64,000 nucleotides of DNA, taken from Leptolyngbya sp. PCC 6406 (GTDB lineage Bacteria; Cyanobacteriota; Cyanobacteriia; Phormidesmidales; Phormidesmidaceae). The DNA is taken from positions 4,239,048 to 4,303,047 of the forward strand of contig NZ_KI913949.1 in the NCBI RefSeq assembly GCF_000332095.2. Direction: 5' to 3'. Position numbers and translations under genes: made by a program. Shown here piece by piece: positions 1 to 61,670 of the stretch. Numbering within the stretch: the first letter of the stretch is position 1; each line of letters begins with the position of its first letter. The notes beneath the pieces are model-generated. The model was given only the letters and a program-made list of their open reading frames with translations, was not told where the DNA came from and did no database searches.

Positions 1-415
1 ATAACAACAGTAACTGGAAGGTCAAGTACTGCTTTTCACTGAGATGGGTGAGAAGGGTAGTTTGGTAGAATGTAGGGAACATATTTGGTTGGGGGAGCTG
101 TACTGAGGCTCCCTTTTTTTTGTCCCCTCCATTATCTCAAAACCCTGTACCGTATGACGTTGAGTGCCCTTGTCACCCGTTAAGGTTCTTGGCATGACAT
201 CCTTACGGTGCATTGCTTCGCCCACGCGAAGCAATGCACCGTAAGGCACTCACAAAGGCGGAGTTGACAGACCACTAGTCTCGCAGGGCGTAAATCAGCC
301 CACTATTGTCGCACCAGCCCAACATTTTCCGGTCCCCTCTCCCCGTGGGAGAGGGCTAGGGTGAGGGGCCGAGTGGGCCACGATAGAACGGTCAGGGTAT
401 TTCCGCCGTCCAGTA
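1..415. other. Intergenic region with palindromic repeats, no gene
   Basis: No convincing coding sequence. It holds a perfect 20-bp inverted repeat at 201-220/227-246 with a 6-nt loop. At 263-278 lies a 16-bp sequence matching the terminal repeat of the MITE-like element at 19465-19612. A G/C-rich hairpin at about 333-367 (CCCTCTCCC / GGGAGAGGG) resembles a common dispersed bacterial repeat. The short open frames here read through the palindromes and have no recognisable protein features. Confidence 0.6.
201..246. repeat. Perfect 20-bp inverted repeat (hairpin)
   Basis: The arms 201-220 and 227-246 are exact reverse complements around the loop CCCACG. The arms contain GGTGCATTGCTTCG and its complement. 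No T-run follows on either strand, so it looks like a dispersed palindromic repeat rather than an intrinsic terminator. Confidence 0.75.
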
Positions 416-2634: not shown

Positions 2635-4023
2635 ATGCCCTCTTCCAGACGGATCACCGTTTCAGTCGCCAGTCCAGAAACCGTTCATGGAACCTTGCCC
2701 CACCTTGGCGTTGCACTCCCCCAAGGCCAAACCATGACCCCTGACCAGAGGGAAGCACTATCAGGCAGAGACTGGGCAACTCCAGTTATGGACCCAGATC
2801 CCCACAACAGCCCCATGGACCATGGGGCTGACAACCTAGCTGACAAGGTGGTAGCAGCCCCCAGAATTGCAGCGCAGCAACAACCGGACCCGCTAGAGCA
2901 AAAACAACTAGAGGATGCCATCGCCGAGCTAGGGACAGTCTTGCCCAACTATAGCCTCGGAGCCTTTTGGCAAAGCCAGGAGAACGCGCCCATGGTGGTG
3001 TGGTGGCCGCAAGAGTCTGCGACCGACCTGGGGTCATCGCCTCTGCCATCGGCCCTGCCACAGTTTGACCTGACCCTCAATGCTGACCTGACAGATGAGG
3101 TCACCCTAAGCATTACCGACCTTTTGACAGCCCAGGCGGCCACAATCCTGGCCCCGCCAGAACCTCTGGCCCAGCAGGAGAAGAATGGGACAGAGCCGGC
3201 CAGACCGCTACCCCCTTTGGTCGCCTTGCCCTGGCGGGCGGCGGCCTATCTCTATGGCGGCGGGTGGGTGCGGCCCCAGGGCGGCGGCCTGGGGCTGGTG
3301 GTGCTGGGCACCACCCCCTTGGCTCCTTTAGCCCAGCACTGTCTGCGACAACAGCTTGCCCTGATGCAGGAAGAAGAATGTCCCAGAAAAGAGCTGGACC
3401 CGACCGTTACCTGCCGCGCCCTAGCCCACCAGATTCAAACCCCCCTATCCCTGCTGGAGCTATACATCACCCTGCTGGACCAAGCCCCAGAAACGTGCTC
3501 CGCCAATGTGGTGCAGACCCTCGGACAAGCCATTCACCAGATTCAAGACGCCCTGACCCGATTTTGCACAAGGTCCGCCCCCGACCAGCGAGACTGGCAC
3601 GATCTGCGTCCAATAGTACTGACGGTGGTGCAGAGCCTAAATCCCTGGGTAGAGACCCAGGGAGTCCAGGTACAAATCCCCGAAGAAGCGTTGACCCTGT
3701 GGTGCGATCGCTGGCAATTGGAGCAGGTCTTCCTGAATATCCTCAACAATGCAGTGCAGTTCAGCCCCCCCCAGGGCACGATTGCCTGTCGTTGGCAGAC
3801 CGTGGCCGAGGGTGTGCTGATCCAGGTGCAAGATCAAGGGCCGGGGCTGGGCGAGGGAGAGCCCCAGCATATCTTTCAGCCCGCCTATTCTCGACGAGAG
3901 GGGGGCAATGGCTTGGGCTTGGCCATTGCCCGTCGTTTTGTCTTGGCCCACCGGGGACATATCTGGGCCGAAGCCCTGCCCATCGGTGGCACTCAAATCA
4001 GTGTTCTTCTGCCCCAATCTTGA
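2635..4023 (+). CDS. Sensor histidine kinase (soluble, two-component)
   Basis: Probably autophosphorylates on a His and passes the phosphate to the response regulator encoded 77 bp downstream. The N-terminal 240 residues are low-complexity and then GAF-like, with no membrane segment. The H-box is ALAHQIQTPLSLL with His at about residue 265. The N-box is NILNNAVQF (about 368), the G1 box is DQGPGLGEG (about 400) and the G2 box is GNGLGLAIARR (about 424), which together form a complete HATPase domain. The start may lie further in, since the first 70 residues are poorly structured and contain further Met codons. The input signal is unknown. Confidence 0.9.
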   Translation: MPSSRRITVSVASPETVHGTLPHLGVALPQGQTMTPDQREALSGRDWATPVMDPDPHNSPMDHGADNLADKVVAAPRIAAQQQPDPLEQKQLEDAIAELGTVLPNYSLGAFWQSQENAPMVVWWPQESATDLGSSPLPSALPQFDLTLNADLTDEVTLSITDLLTAQAATILAPPEPLAQQEKNGTEPARPLPPLVALPWRAAAYLYGGGWVRPQGGGLGLVVLGTTPLAPLAQHCLRQQLALMQEEECPRKELDPTVTCRALAHQIQTPLSLLELYITLLDQAPETCSANVVQTLGQAIHQIQDALTRFCTRSAPDQRDWHDLRPIVLTVVQSLNPWVETQGVQVQIPEEALTLWCDRWQLEQVFLNILNNAVQFSPPQGTIACRWQTVAEGVLIQVQDQGPGLGEGEPQHIFQPAYSRREGGNGLGLAIARRFVLAHRGHIWAEALPIGGTQISVLLPQS

Positions 4024-4100: not shown

Positions 4101-4796
4101 GTGACCCTTCACCCTGTGCCCATCTCTAGCACCCCTTCCCAAACCATTTCCGTGCTGCTGGTGGATGACAACCCCAGCTTTCGCCATGGTCTGCAAGCCC
4201 TGCTAGACTTCTACAGCGGTAACGGTCCTAGCCGCTATCAGGTCGTGGGACAGGCAACCTCTGTAGAGCAGGCGGTGAAACTAACCATAGAGCAGTCCCC
4301 TACCCTGGTCTTGCTAGATATGGAGCTGGGCCAGAGCAGTGGCTTGACGTTTTTGCAAACCCGCCCTAAGGGAAATGAGCGGGTGCTGGTATTGAGTGCC
4401 CACCGGGAGGACGAATGGGTCTTCCGGGCGATGCAGGCAGGGGCCAGTGGTTATCTGTTCAAAACCCACTTGGCGGAGCGGCTCTGGCCCGCCATTACAA
4501 CAGTGCTGAAGGATCAGATATACCTATCACCGGAGGTGGCCACAGGCTTTTTTCGTCTGTTTCAGTTCTATAACGGTGGGGCGCTGACAACGGCGACCAT
4601 CCCCCTAACGGAGCGGGAGCAGGAGGTGCTGCACTGGTTGGTGCAGGGGGCGTCTAATAATGCGATCGCGCAACGCCTCCACATCACCGTGGCCACGGTC
4701 AAGGCCCACCTCACCGCCATCTTTGAAAAGCTAGAGGTCAGCAGTCGCACCCAGGCCATTGTCAAAGCCCTGAAGCTGGGGCTAGTGGCAGCTTAA
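4101..4796 (+). CDS. NarL/FixJ-family response regulator
   Basis: Transcription regulator of 231 residues, likely the partner of the upstream kinase. The receiver domain begins at SVLLVDDNPSF, and the phospho-accepting Asp is in VLLDMELG (about D73). The C-terminal LuxR-type helix-turn-helix is recognisable from LTEREQEVLHWLVQG and from IAQRLHITVATVKAHL. A much longer open frame extends upstream through the kinase gene. The GTG at 4101, preceded by a GGAAG about 8 bases away, gives a protein of normal family length, so I chose that start. Target genes are unknown. Confidence 0.88.
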   Translation: MTLHPVPISSTPSQTISVLLVDDNPSFRHGLQALLDFYSGNGPSRYQVVGQATSVEQAVKLTIEQSPTLVLLDMELGQSSGLTFLQTRPKGNERVLVLSAHREDEWVFRAMQAGASGYLFKTHLAERLWPAITTVLKDQIYLSPEVATGFFRLFQFYNGGALTTATIPLTEREQEVLHWLVQGASNNAIAQRLHITVATVKAHLTAIFEKLEVSSRTQAIVKALKLGLVAA

Positions 4797-4910
4797 GCTG
4801 GTCCCTAAAGCTTGCGATCTATGCGATCTTCTATGCGATCTAGAAGGTGCAACCGACCACAACCCTAATCCATTAATTCAAGTTAATTCAAATTAATTCA
4901 AACCGACTGC

Positions 4911-6221
4911 ATGAGTAACCATCTGGCGATTGCCACCGTCACCGCTACCCTGCAACGCACCCTCCAGACGGCGGTCCAGGGAGATGTCGAGGGTGCCCGA
5001 GTCACCACCGTACGCCCCAGTGACATCGGCAACGGCACCCCAGAGACGGGGGTAAATGTCTTTCTATACCAAATTATTACCAACCCCGCCCTGACTAACA
5101 TGGATGCGGCCCCCATCCGGGCCAAGGGCAATCCCGGCAAGCGACAAGCCGCCCTCGATCTCTTCTATATGCTGAGTTTCTACGGTAATGAAAGCGAGTT
5201 GGCCCCCCAGCGCCTATTGGGCAGCGTTGTCAGCACCCTCACCGACCTCCGCAGCATTCCCGCCACCCTGATTCAAGACACCTGCGACGACAGCACCTTG
5301 AGCTTTCTGCGGGACTCAAACCTAGGGGATCAGGTGCAGCAGCTCAATGTCATCCCCATGGATCTGAGCCTAGAAGACTTATCCAAAACCTGGACCGTCT
5401 TTTTCCAAACTCCCTACGTCCTGTCCATTGCCTACAAGGTGATGGTGCTGATGCTAGAGGGGGAAGTGCCCTTCCAGAGGGCTTTGCCAATTCGAGAGCG
5501 CCAAACCGGGGGAACGACACCCTACTTCAAGCAGCCCACTGTGGAGCGGGTGATTGCGGCGGAGGGGCGGCTAGCTCCCATCCACACCACCAGCGATATC
5601 AAAATCCAAGGCCAGTTCCTCAAGGGCCGCGATGGTCAGGGGCCGGCCCAAAGGGGCCATCAAACCCTAGTCCGCATCGGCGATCGAGAAATCATCCCCT
5701 CCACCGTCACCGATACAGAAATTACCCTATCCCTCACCAGCCTGCCCGCCAGCGCCCTGCGAGCAGGCGTCCAGAGCCTCCAAGTGCTCCATCCCCCTAC
5801 TGCCGGGTCGTTGCCCCCTGGTGCCCCAGGCTATGGCCTAGGGGTAGAGTCCAATGCTGCCCCCTTTGTGCTGCGACCGACCCTAGATGCGATCGCGGTG
5901 GAACTCAACGCCACTGACGAAGATGAACCCCGCGCCGGCCAGGTTTCCCTCCAAATCAACCTTCCTGTATATCCCGAACAACGGGTGGTGCTGTTTTTGA
6001 ATGAATGGTCCGTCACCACACCCCAGTCCTATCTCTTTGACAAGGCCGACCCCCGCACCGAACCCACCCAAACCATCACTGTCCCCATTCACCATATTCA
6101 ACCGGGCGAATACCTGGTACGCATTCACGTAGACGGGGCTGAAAGTCAACTCGTTGTGGATGACACCCCCGGCAGCCCCACCGAAAACTGGTTCATCGGC
6201 CCCCGCCTCACCATTCCCTAA
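4911..6221 (+). CDS. DUF4255 / Pvc16-like protein, orphan contractile-injection component
   Basis: The N-terminal 190 residues match the DUF4255 (Pvc16_N) pattern: a short helix with VTATLQRTLQ, then VNVFLYQIITNPALTNMD, then LDLFYMLSFYG and LSKTWTVFFQTPYVLSIAYKV. In extracellular or thylakoid-anchored contractile injection systems this family caps the tail tube or sheath. The C-terminal half (residues 215-436) looks beta-rich, with IPT/TIG-like immunoglobulin folds (IKIQGQFL, VRIGDREI). No sheath, tube, baseplate or AAA-loader genes are in the window. It lies 115 bp after the response regulator and 41 bp before an aldehyde dehydrogenase. Family call fairly sure; role here unknown. Confidence 0.78.
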   Translation: MSNHLAIATVTATLQRTLQTAVQGDVEGARVTTVRPSDIGNGTPETGVNVFLYQIITNPALTNMDAAPIRAKGNPGKRQAALDLFYMLSFYGNESELAPQRLLGSVVSTLTDLRSIPATLIQDTCDDSTLSFLRDSNLGDQVQQLNVIPMDLSLEDLSKTWTVFFQTPYVLSIAYKVMVLMLEGEVPFQRALPIRERQTGGTTPYFKQPTVERVIAAEGRLAPIHTTSDIKIQGQFLKGRDGQGPAQRGHQTLVRIGDREIIPSTVTDTEITLSLTSLPASALRAGVQSLQVLHPPTAGSLPPGAPGYGLGVESNAAPFVLRPTLDAIAVELNATDEDEPRAGQVSLQINLPVYPEQRVVLFLNEWSVTTPQSYLFDKADPRTEPTQTITVPIHHIQPGEYLVRIHVDGAESQLVVDDTPGSPTENWFIGPRLTIP

Positions 6222-60055: not shown

Positions 60056-61670
60056 GTAAGCCTTCAGGGGTTCACGAAGAATTAAGGGTTCCAGGGTCTC
60101 GATAGGGGTTAAGGTAGGCTCATGAGTGAAGGCAACGAGCCCACCATAGACATCGGCGGCATCTCCATTTCTGTGTCAGATTGGGATGCCACCCCGGCTA
60201 GCGTAAAAAAAGCTCTGGTGTGCGCTCTCATTGAGACCATCAGTCGCTTAGAAGAGCGGGTGAGCCACCTCGAAGAGCAACTCAACCAGAATTCGCAAAA
60301 CTCATCGTTGCCGCCTTCAAAGGATGGATTCGGCCCCCCTAAGCCAGACCCGGAGGGCAAAGGCAAAGGGAAGCGGAAGCGCGGAGGCCAACCGGGACAC
60401 AAAGGATATTCCCGCAAGCTGTATCCCCTAGAAGCCTGCAAACAGGTGTTCGAGCATCGCCCCAAGACCTGTGGGCATTGTGGAGAGCCGCTATCAGGAA
60501 ACGACCCAGCGCCCTATCGGCACCAGATTGTCGAACTACCGCCAATTGAGCCCATCGTCATCGAGCATCGCCTGCACGCCTTAGATTGTGAGCACTGCGG
60601 TAAAACCACCCGTAGCAAATTACCAGCAGAGGTGCATCAAGGCGGTTATGGTGAGCGGTTGAGTGCAGTAGTGGCCTTACTGAGTGGCGCTTATCGCCAA
60701 AGCCATCAGCAGGTGAAGACCTGTCTAGCAGCGCTGTTTGAGATCGAGATTTCTGGCGGCAGCATCAACCGGCTACGCCGAGAAGCCAGTGCGGCACTGG
60801 GGCAGCCAGTAGCTGAGGCGCAAGGCTACGTGCAGGGGGAAGCGGTGATTCACAGTGATGAGACTAGCTTTCGCCAGGGGAACAGCGATGGCCAGAATCA
60901 GGCCCAGCGACAGGGTTGGCTGTGGGTGCTGGTGACGCCGATGGTGAGTGTGTTCAGCATTCTGTTGAGCCGGTCTCAAGCCGCCGCCCAAGCACTGATT
61001 GGCCCAGCCTATGACGGCATTGTGGTCTCAGACCGCTACAGCGGCTATGGGTGGATTGATATTAGCCAACGCCAGGTGTGTTGGGCTCATCTCAAACGAG
61101 ACTTTACTCGGATTGCCGAGCGTCAGGGGGTCTGCCAAGAGATTGGAAAAGGCTTACTGGCTCAACAAAAAGCGTTGTTTGAGTTGTGGTACCAAGTGCG
61201 GGATGGCACCCTTTCCCGGACTGGCTTTGCTGAGTTAGTCCAGCCGATTCGGGCTGCTGTAAAAGCGGTGCTTGAGGAGGGAGCGAACTATGACATTGGC
61301 CCAAAGGAGAAGACGCCTTTGGCCAAGACGGTACGCACTTGCCGACAACTGCTGTTGGTGGAACCGGCTCTGTGGACGTTTGTCACGGTGCTGGGGGTGG
61401 AGCCCACCAATAATACGGCTGAGCGTTCTTTGCGAGCTGGGGTGATTTGGAAGCGCATCAGCTTTGGGGCGGAGTCTCAGGCCGGCAGTGAGTTTGTCGC
61501 CCGGATGCTGACGACGGTTTCTTCTCTGACGATGCAGCAGCGAGATGTGCTGGACTTTCTCACTCAAGCCTATTGGTCGGCTCGCTTTGGCCAACCGCCT
61601 CCTTCATTGCTGCCTTTGGCCACTCATCAGCCTCAAACCCTAATCACGCCGTGACCCCCTGAAGGCTTAC
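60056..61670. mobile_element. IS66-family insertion sequence (ISBst12-like, 1615 bp)
   Basis: Complete element: 20-bp terminal inverted repeats GTAAGCCTTCAGGGGTTCAC (60056-60075) and the complement of GTGACCCCCTGAAGGCTTAC (61651-61670) differ at one position. They start with GTAA as in IS66 elements and are flanked by an 8-bp duplication. It carries only the transposase gene and no tnpA/tnpB-like accessory frames, as in the ISBst12 subgroup. It looks intact and recently inserted, since ends and duplication are undamaged. Confidence 0.93.
60122..61654 (+). CDS. IS66-family transposase
   Basis: A 510-residue DDE transposase. An N-terminal Leu-zipper (ISRLEERVSHLEEQLNQNS) is followed by the LPPSKDGFG motif, the Zn-finger CGHCGEPL and CEHCGKTTRSKLPAE, the first catalytic Asp in VIHSDETSF, VVSDRYSGYGWID and HLKRDFTRI, and the TNNTAERSLR motif with the catalytic Glu. 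The stop codon lies inside the right terminal repeat. Full length and undamaged. Confidence 0.95.
   Translation: MSEGNEPTIDIGGISISVSDWDATPASVKKALVCALIETISRLEERVSHLEEQLNQNSQNSSLPPSKDGFGPPKPDPEGKGKGKRKRGGQPGHKGYSRKLYPLEACKQVFEHRPKTCGHCGEPLSGNDPAPYRHQIVELPPIEPIVIEHRLHALDCEHCGKTTRSKLPAEVHQGGYGERLSAVVALLSGAYRQSHQQVKTCLAALFEIEISGGSINRLRREASAALGQPVAEAQGYVQGEAVIHSDETSFRQGNSDGQNQAQRQGWLWVLVTPMVSVFSILLSRSQAAAQALIGPAYDGIVVSDRYSGYGWIDISQRQVCWAHLKRDFTRIAERQGVCQEIGKGLLAQQKALFELWYQVRDGTLSRTGFAELVQPIRAAVKAVLEEGANYDIGPKEKTPLAKTVRTCRQLLLVEPALWTFVTVLGVEPTNNTAERSLRAGVIWKRISFGAESQAGSEFVARMLTTVSSLTMQQRDVLDFLTQAYWSARFGQPPPSLLPLATHQPQTLITP

What the first reader, a model, noticed from the sequence alone, without database searches (positions are those of the whole stretch)
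4911..6221. Orphan DUF4255 (Pvc16-like) protein outside any contractile injection cluster
The N-terminal half matches the family that caps contractile injection tails, but no sheath, tube, spike or baseplate gene lies within 64 kb. It is instead next to a two-component pair and an aldehyde dehydrogenase and carries C-terminal Ig-like domains. This could be a split contractile system whose cap is separately regulated, or a cap fold put to another use. Known: cyanobacteria have thylakoid-anchored contractile systems.
Basis: partly seen in the sequence, partly recalled or inferred. Interest (0 to 1): 0.55.

Follow-up and report, generated by a model that had tools for sequence, protein, structure and literature searches.

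The report
Cap of a scattered bacterial injector
The gene encodes the end cap of a phage-tail-like injection machine whose other genes lie in at least three distant places on the same cyanobacterial chromosome, and shared DNA signals suggest that the control genes beside the cap switch the scattered pieces on together.

Summary
ORF 4911-6221 is a 436-aa protein with a full Pvc16_N/DUF4255 domain, two C-terminal Ig-like domains, a histidine kinase and NarL-type regulator upstream, and no other contractile-injection (CIS) gene in the window, 40 kb before it or 20 kb after it. It is not an orphan. The same chromosome carries a baseplate module (2.25 Mb), a tube-sheath-spike module (3.29-3.30 Mb) and a small gene plus AAA+ ATPase (4.536 Mb). 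Relatives keep these together far more often, so this genome has a dispersed CIS. Ten of 45 cap loci with enough flank lack a nearby sheath; all ten genomes have a sheath elsewhere. A palindrome, ATTaGACttaaGTCtAAT, precedes sheath and baseplate operons, with TAN3T 31 nt past its centre; held-out copies precede both operons in this genome. It tracks the regulator (42 of 47 against 2 of 18 sheath loci), though phylogenetically independent contrasts are only 4:0 (p 0.125). Best reading: the two-component pair travels with the cap and activates the detached structural operons in trans. The CIS is closest to the Streptomyces cytoplasmic type, not the Anabaena thylakoid type. DNA binding is inferred, not shown.

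The parts
4911..6221 (+). CIS distal cap (tail terminator) protein, DUF4255/Pvc16 family, 436 aa, sole copy in the genome
   Evidence: Pfam PF14065 129.6 bits, only genome match, N-domain fold matches solved CIS caps Z 12.1-15.5, dN/dS 0.125 against the same-genus ortholog
4935..5498 (+). Pvc16_N domain (residues 9-196)
   Evidence: model and fold search
5526..5879 (+). first C-terminal Ig-like domain (residues 206-323)
   Evidence: VIA-align Z up to 9.6 to the Ig-like domain of CGTases
5877..6218 (+). second C-terminal Ig/FN3-like domain (residues 323-436)
   Evidence: beta-rich in the model; weaker Ig-type matches, Z about 7
2635..4023 (+). histidine kinase of the CIS-linked two-component pair
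   Evidence: HATPase_c 77.3 bits, HisKA 16.4 bits (below cut-off); AHQIQTPL H-box, H265; kinases upstream of RR-cap in relatives, recognised by kinase domain only
4101..4796 (+). NarL/FixJ-type response regulator, putative activator of the dispersed CIS operons
   Evidence: Response_reg 62.3 and GerE 72.9 bits; ortholog directly upstream of the cap in 28 of 62 loci with enough upstream sequence; tracks the operator
4797..4910 (+). RR-cap spacer with three tandem TTAATTCAA-like repeats; no operator here
   Evidence: sequence; best operator score -0.1
1..185 (-). end of a truncated IS4-like element copy, also found at two other CIS modules
   Evidence: 98.9% identical to the element beside the spike gene

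Best explanation
The gene is the real distal cap of a Streptomyces-like (type IId-like) CIS that has been broken into at least four chromosomal modules: HK-RR-cap (in the window), baseplate, tube-sheath-spike, and small gene plus AAA+ ATPase. The two-component pair that travels with the cap is the likely regulator: on its signal the phosphorylated NarL-type regulator binds a palindrome (ATTaGACttaaGTCtAAT) centred about 31 nt before a TAN3T -10 element, where a class II activator would sit, and turns on the sheath and baseplate operons in trans. The cap is then made from the regulator's own transcript and terminates tube and sheath. Shown: parts, positions, conservation, operator and promoter geometry, intact reading frames. 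Inferred: DNA binding, activation, signal, assembly.
For: Full CIS part list in the same genome. Cap fold Z 15.5 to the S. coelicolor CIS cap. Same-genus relatives place the cap beside the sheath (G047) or beside gp25 (G049). RR directly upstream of the cap in 28 of 62 loci. Motif found separately in sheath, HK and gp25 upstreams, log-likelihood 108-218 against 55-79 in two shuffles each at width 20. PWM trained without this genome: 18.4 bits upstream of its sheath, the only site of 12 bits or more in 223,847 bases, and 10.5 bits upstream of its gp25, one of 3 at that score. The motif is the one well conserved block in an alignment of 7 gp25 upstreams. TAN3T lies 31 nt past the centre in 40 of 136 strand windows, background about 2, and at both sites here. 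Operator within 1500 bp of the sheath: 41 of 44 with RR against 2 of 18 without, p 4.8e-10; 42 of 47 after three more were resolved. Where RR is not at the sheath locus: 10 of 12. All 14 high-quality genomes of the order with RR have a sheath.
Against: Independent contrasts on a sheath tree: about 4 concordant, 0 discordant, 3 ties, p 0.125. A naive per-locus test was not significant, p 0.40. Two genomes have the operator without a detected RR (L084, L149); five have RR without the operator near the sheath (L046, L047, L054, L184, L078). The pattern is not more frequent genome-wide than its reversed control (2 against 6 in this genome). The gp25 site is a degenerate palindrome. No expression or binding data.
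Confidence: 0.78

Rival explanations
1. The dispersed modules are real, but the operator is read by another regulator; the neighbouring HK-RR pair controls something else or only the cap.
For: No operator at the HK-RR-cap unit itself; operator without detected RR in L084 and L149; phylogeny-corrected association not significant.
Against: RR presence predicts the operator even where RR is unlinked from the sheath (10 of 12 against 2 of 18); all 14 high-quality RR genomes of the order have a sheath; 18-bp dyads are usual for NarL-type regulators (recalled).
Confidence: 0.15
2. The system is decaying: the cluster was scattered by insertion sequences and the cap is a relic.
For: IS4-like element ends lie 39 bp from the spike stop and 35 bp from the ATPase stop, and a truncated copy lies upstream of HK; the short DUF4255 cap of relatives is absent.
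Against: The CIS frames seen are open; dN/dS is 0.125 for the cap, 0.055 sheath, 0.097 gp25, 0.091 baseplate J; operators are kept at both detached operons.
Confidence: 0.1
3. The cap fold has been put to another use beside the two-component system or the aldehyde dehydrogenase.
For: No CIS gene nearby; extra Ig-like domains; Cylindrospermum NIES-4074 has a second cap-family gene (L152) about 0.48 Mb from its sheath.
Against: This is the only DUF4255 gene in a genome that has all other core parts; same-genus orthologs sit beside the sheath or gp25; the aldehyde dehydrogenase is not found next to the cap in the relatives scanned.
Confidence: 0.04
4. The split is an assembly artefact.
For: No reads could be examined.
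Against: One 5.47-Mb contig in a 3-contig, 99.96% complete genome; other assemblies show separate loci, e.g. Scytolyngbya with the cap over 50 kb from either end of its contig and the sheath on an 830-kb contig.
Confidence: 0.03

Closest known systems
Streptomyces coelicolor cytoplasmic CIS (CISSc, type IId)
   Same: Best solved match for sheath (8bky, E 6.6e-74) and baseplate J (9gtp, E 9.8e-114), and the top cap fold match (9gts_0A, Z 15.5)
   Different: There one gene cluster, sco4242-sco4260 (PMC10066040, passages); here four or more loci, a two-component pair at the cap and an operator
Anabaena thylakoid-anchored CIS (all3313-all3327)
   Same: DUF4255-fold cap (7b5i_AA, Z 14.0), sheath, baseplate, DUF4157 cargo
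   Different: Much more distant sheath (E 4.8e-24) and baseplate (E 8.8e-5); one cluster and a two-protein cap (PMC8894136, passages and outline); the Cis12 extension has no room in the 344-aa tail protein here
eCIS loci with a GerE regulator (Geller et al. 2021)
   Same: GerE regulator next to 25.8% of eCIS loci, with a histidine kinase upstream in 9% of those, suggested there as a two-component control (PMC8213781, passages)
   Different: No operator or trans link appears in the passages seen; their search required linked core genes, so a split system like this one would be missed
AFP/PVC caps Afp16/Pvc16
   Same: N-domain fold, Z 12.1-12.4
   Different: This protein adds two Ig-like domains; sequence similarity is too low for phmmer

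Membership tests
CIS cap protein (DUF4255/Pvc16) | Pvc16_N domain | tested here: met
   129.6 bits, full profile
CIS cap protein (DUF4255/Pvc16) | cap fold | tested here: met
   Z 15.5, 14.7, 14.0, 12.4, 12.3, 12.1 to six solved caps; best unrelated row 9.6
CIS cap protein (DUF4255/Pvc16) | sits at the distal end of tube and sheath | not testable with these tools
   needs purified particles
Contractile injection system | sheath, tube, spike, PAAR, gp25, baseplate J, tail-I, cap and AAA ATPase in one genome | tested here: met
   and 8 for the cap
Contractile injection system | genes in one cluster (used by published surveys) | tested here: not met
   four loci at 2.25, 3.29-3.30, 4.244 and 4.536 Mb
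Contractile injection system | no phage head genes (not a prophage) | not tested
   no capsid or terminase search was run
Type IId CIS | sheath and baseplate closest to Streptomyces among solved systems | tested here: met
Type IId CIS | placement on the published Afp8/Afp11 tree | not tested
   tree not rebuilt
Thylakoid-anchored CIS | Cis12 extension (residues 610-1100 in Anabaena) | tested here: not met
   tail-I protein is 344 aa; CIS12 model 70 bits against cut-off 860; residue range
Thylakoid-anchored CIS | Cis13 membrane segment and Cis19 crown | not tested
   Only a weak partial CIS13 family match, 45.5 bits against cut-off 370
Two-component regulator of a CIS | H-box kinase with ATPase domain, receiver + GerE regulator | tested here: met
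Two-component regulator of a CIS | conserved linkage to CIS genes | tested here: met
   RR directly upstream of the cap in 28 of 62 loci
Two-component regulator of a CIS | binds and activates CIS promoters | tested here: inconclusive
   association strong but few independent events

The most novel reading that the evidence does not exclude
A working contractile injection system can be taken apart into four or more unlinked chromosomal loci and held together in trans: a dedicated two-component regulator stays with the cap, and each detached structural operon keeps the regulator's palindromic operator at a fixed 31-nt distance from TAN3T. The cap gene is the regulatory anchor, so cluster-based surveys undercount CIS in cyanobacteria.
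Probability: 0.6. Interest if true: 0.72.

Novelty: new variant of a known kind. Interest (0 to 1): 0.62.

Why it matters
How stress or other signals switch on cytoplasmic and cyanobacterial CIS is open. This gives a named regulator, a specific operator, a promoter geometry and a short target list that can be tested directly. It also shows that surveys that need ten linked core genes miss real systems: here, and in ten of 45 well-flanked cap loci, the cap is not near the sheath. And it offers a natural case of a multi-protein machine kept working after its cluster has fallen apart.

Tried and rejected
A complete CIS cluster just outside the window: none within 40 kb upstream or 20 kb downstream. 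phmmer of the cap against solved structures gave only chance hits; the family profile gave weak hits to two caps. A per-locus RR-operator test was not significant because RR can be elsewhere and a short second cap gene often lies between operator and sheath. A second genome-wide operator match at C1:3618617 lies in an unrelated nuclease-like ORF and is taken as chance. A site at window 14222 (11.9 bits) lies inside another ORF and is taken as chance. The operator was not found near the two DUF4157 genes. Five sheath loci of unknown RR state and one with too little upstream sequence were left out of the final association. Literature: searches gave no paper describing this operator or a dispersed CIS in the lists seen; most papers were seen only as listings.

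HK orthology is weak evidence: the HK model was built from one sequence, so kinases in relatives are recognised by their kinase domain alone. RR in L138 and L141 is only 44-47% identical. The RR state of L110 was set by hand for the tree.

Full report
Observation. The ORF at 4911-6221 is real and carries a complete Pvc16_N domain. It is the only such gene in the 5.78-Mb, 3-contig genome. Upstream lie a histidine kinase (2635-4023) and a receiver + GerE regulator (about 4101-4796), downstream an aldehyde dehydrogenase. No other CIS gene lies in the window, 40 kb before it or 20 kb after it.

Where the rest is. The window is C1:4239048-4303047. A sheath match lies at C1:3300988-3301353, inside a module at 3288194-3302394 that holds sheath, gp19-type tube proteins, a CIS_tube protein, a CHASE2 protein and a VgrG-related spike. 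The gp25 match lies at C1:2250589-2250840, in a module with PAAR, baseplate J (TIGR02243, 625 bits) and tail-I (TIGR02242, 116 bits) proteins. A small gene that follows the cap in many relatives is at C1:4537621-4537848, and the next gene is a 691-aa AAA+ ATPase of the kind that follows the cap in many relatives. Two DUF4157 (eCIS_core) genes lie at 1.516 and 3.224 Mb. So the CIS is in at least four places, plus two candidate cargo genes.

Ancestral order. In the same genus, G047 (Leptolyngbya RL_3_1) has sheath(-), RR(+), cap(+), small gene; G049 has cap, small gene, PAAR, gp25, baseplate J. G061 and G044 have sheath(-), HK, RR, cap. Of 80 cap loci fetched from named genomes (533 relatives found, best 80 kept), 62 have at least 2.5 kb upstream and 28 of these have the RR directly upstream. 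Of 45 with at least 7.5 kb on both sides, 10 have no sheath there; all ten genomes have a sheath elsewhere, and six of the ten keep the AAA ATPase in the locus. Detachment of the cap module is thus recurrent, and this genome has gone further than most.

Breaks. In G047 the genes after the cap are small gene, tilS, minC, minD, minE; here the min genes precede small gene and ATPase 292 kb from the cap (gene names other than CIS parts are my reading of the sequences). An IS4-like element ends 39 bp from the spike stop, fragments of the same element end 35 bp from the ATPase stop, and a truncated copy lies upstream of the kinase. IS-driven scattering is likely but the copy number of the element is unknown.

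A shared operator. A motif search on 300-bp upstreams gave the same dyad separately for sheath, kinase and gp25 sets (this genome was included there). A pooled palindromic matrix made without this genome (117 upstreams) scores 18.4 bits at -127 of the sheath here and 10.5 bits at -65 of gp25. In 223,847 bases of this genome the first is the only site of 12 bits or more, the second is one of three at 10.5. An alignment of seven gp25 upstreams shows the dyad as the one well conserved block. TAN3T follows 31 nt after the centre in 40 of 136 strand windows of 68 non-redundant sites, against about 2 at other offsets. That is the spacing expected of a class II activator; the comparison with NtcA-type promoters is recalled. 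Genome-wide, exact or one-mismatch matches are no commoner than the reversed pattern; the signal is in where they lie.

Which regulator. RR orthologs occur in 21 of 63 genomes of the order; 19 of the 21 have a sheath match and the other two are incomplete. Operator within 1500 bp upstream of the sheath: 41 of 44 RR genomes against 2 of 18 without, 42 of 47 after three more were resolved. Where RR lies away from the sheath locus it is 10 of 12. On a sheath tree the independent contrasts are about 4 for, 0 against and 3 ties, p 0.125, so relatedness could still explain much of it. Exceptions are listed under evidence against.

The cap. The 40-sequence model (mean pLDDT 82, pTM 0.54) gives Z 15.5 to the S. 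coelicolor CIS cap, 14.7 Algoriphagus, 14.0 Anabaena, 12.1-12.4 PVC and AFP, with the best unrelated row at 9.6. The model joins domains loosely (low pTM), so only the single domains are trusted. Cap, sheath, gp25, baseplate J and RR are under purifying selection (dN/dS 0.055-0.125; dS saturated for two of the seven pairs).

Which CIS. Sheath and baseplate J match the Streptomyces cytoplasmic CIS far better than the Anabaena thylakoid system. The Streptomyces paper (PMC10066040, passages) reports one cluster and a role in stress-linked cell death. A like role here is possible but untested.

Prior work. Geller et al. 2021 (PMC8213781, passages) already proposed a GerE regulator, at times with a kinase, for eCIS loci, and required at least ten core genes in a linked group. 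The operator, its geometry and the link to detached modules were not in the passages or listings I saw.

Noticed in passing
L152 (Cylindrospermum sp. NIES-4074): A second cap-family gene with an AAA ATPase about 0.48 Mb from the genome's only detected sheath; may be a truly free-standing cap-ATPase pair.
   Followed up: partly
G003:C1:3927453 (L200:7453): A 22.3-bit operator near a 1913-aa proline-rich ORF far from the CIS cluster; possible further regulon member.
   Followed up: partly
G000:C1:3290670-3294971: 1433-aa low-complexity protein between tube and CIS_tube genes, with repeated VLQPLS-like and SAHP-like stretches; function unknown.
   Followed up: no
G000:C1:2255721-2258075: Baseplate-module protein with an apparent membrane segment and WD40 repeats, kept in relatives; possible anchor or sensor.
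   Followed up: no
L119, L136, L139, L148, L153 (Chloroflexi and archaeal contigs): Long-form caps 40-48% identical to this one in Chloroflexi, Methanoperedens and other archaeal records, most beside a sheath: likely transfer between phyla.
   Followed up: no
G000:C1:3286832-3288155 and window 1-185: IS4-like element copies at the edges of three of four CIS modules.
   Followed up: partly
window 60122-61651: IS66 transposase copy matching one near the sheath module.
   Followed up: no
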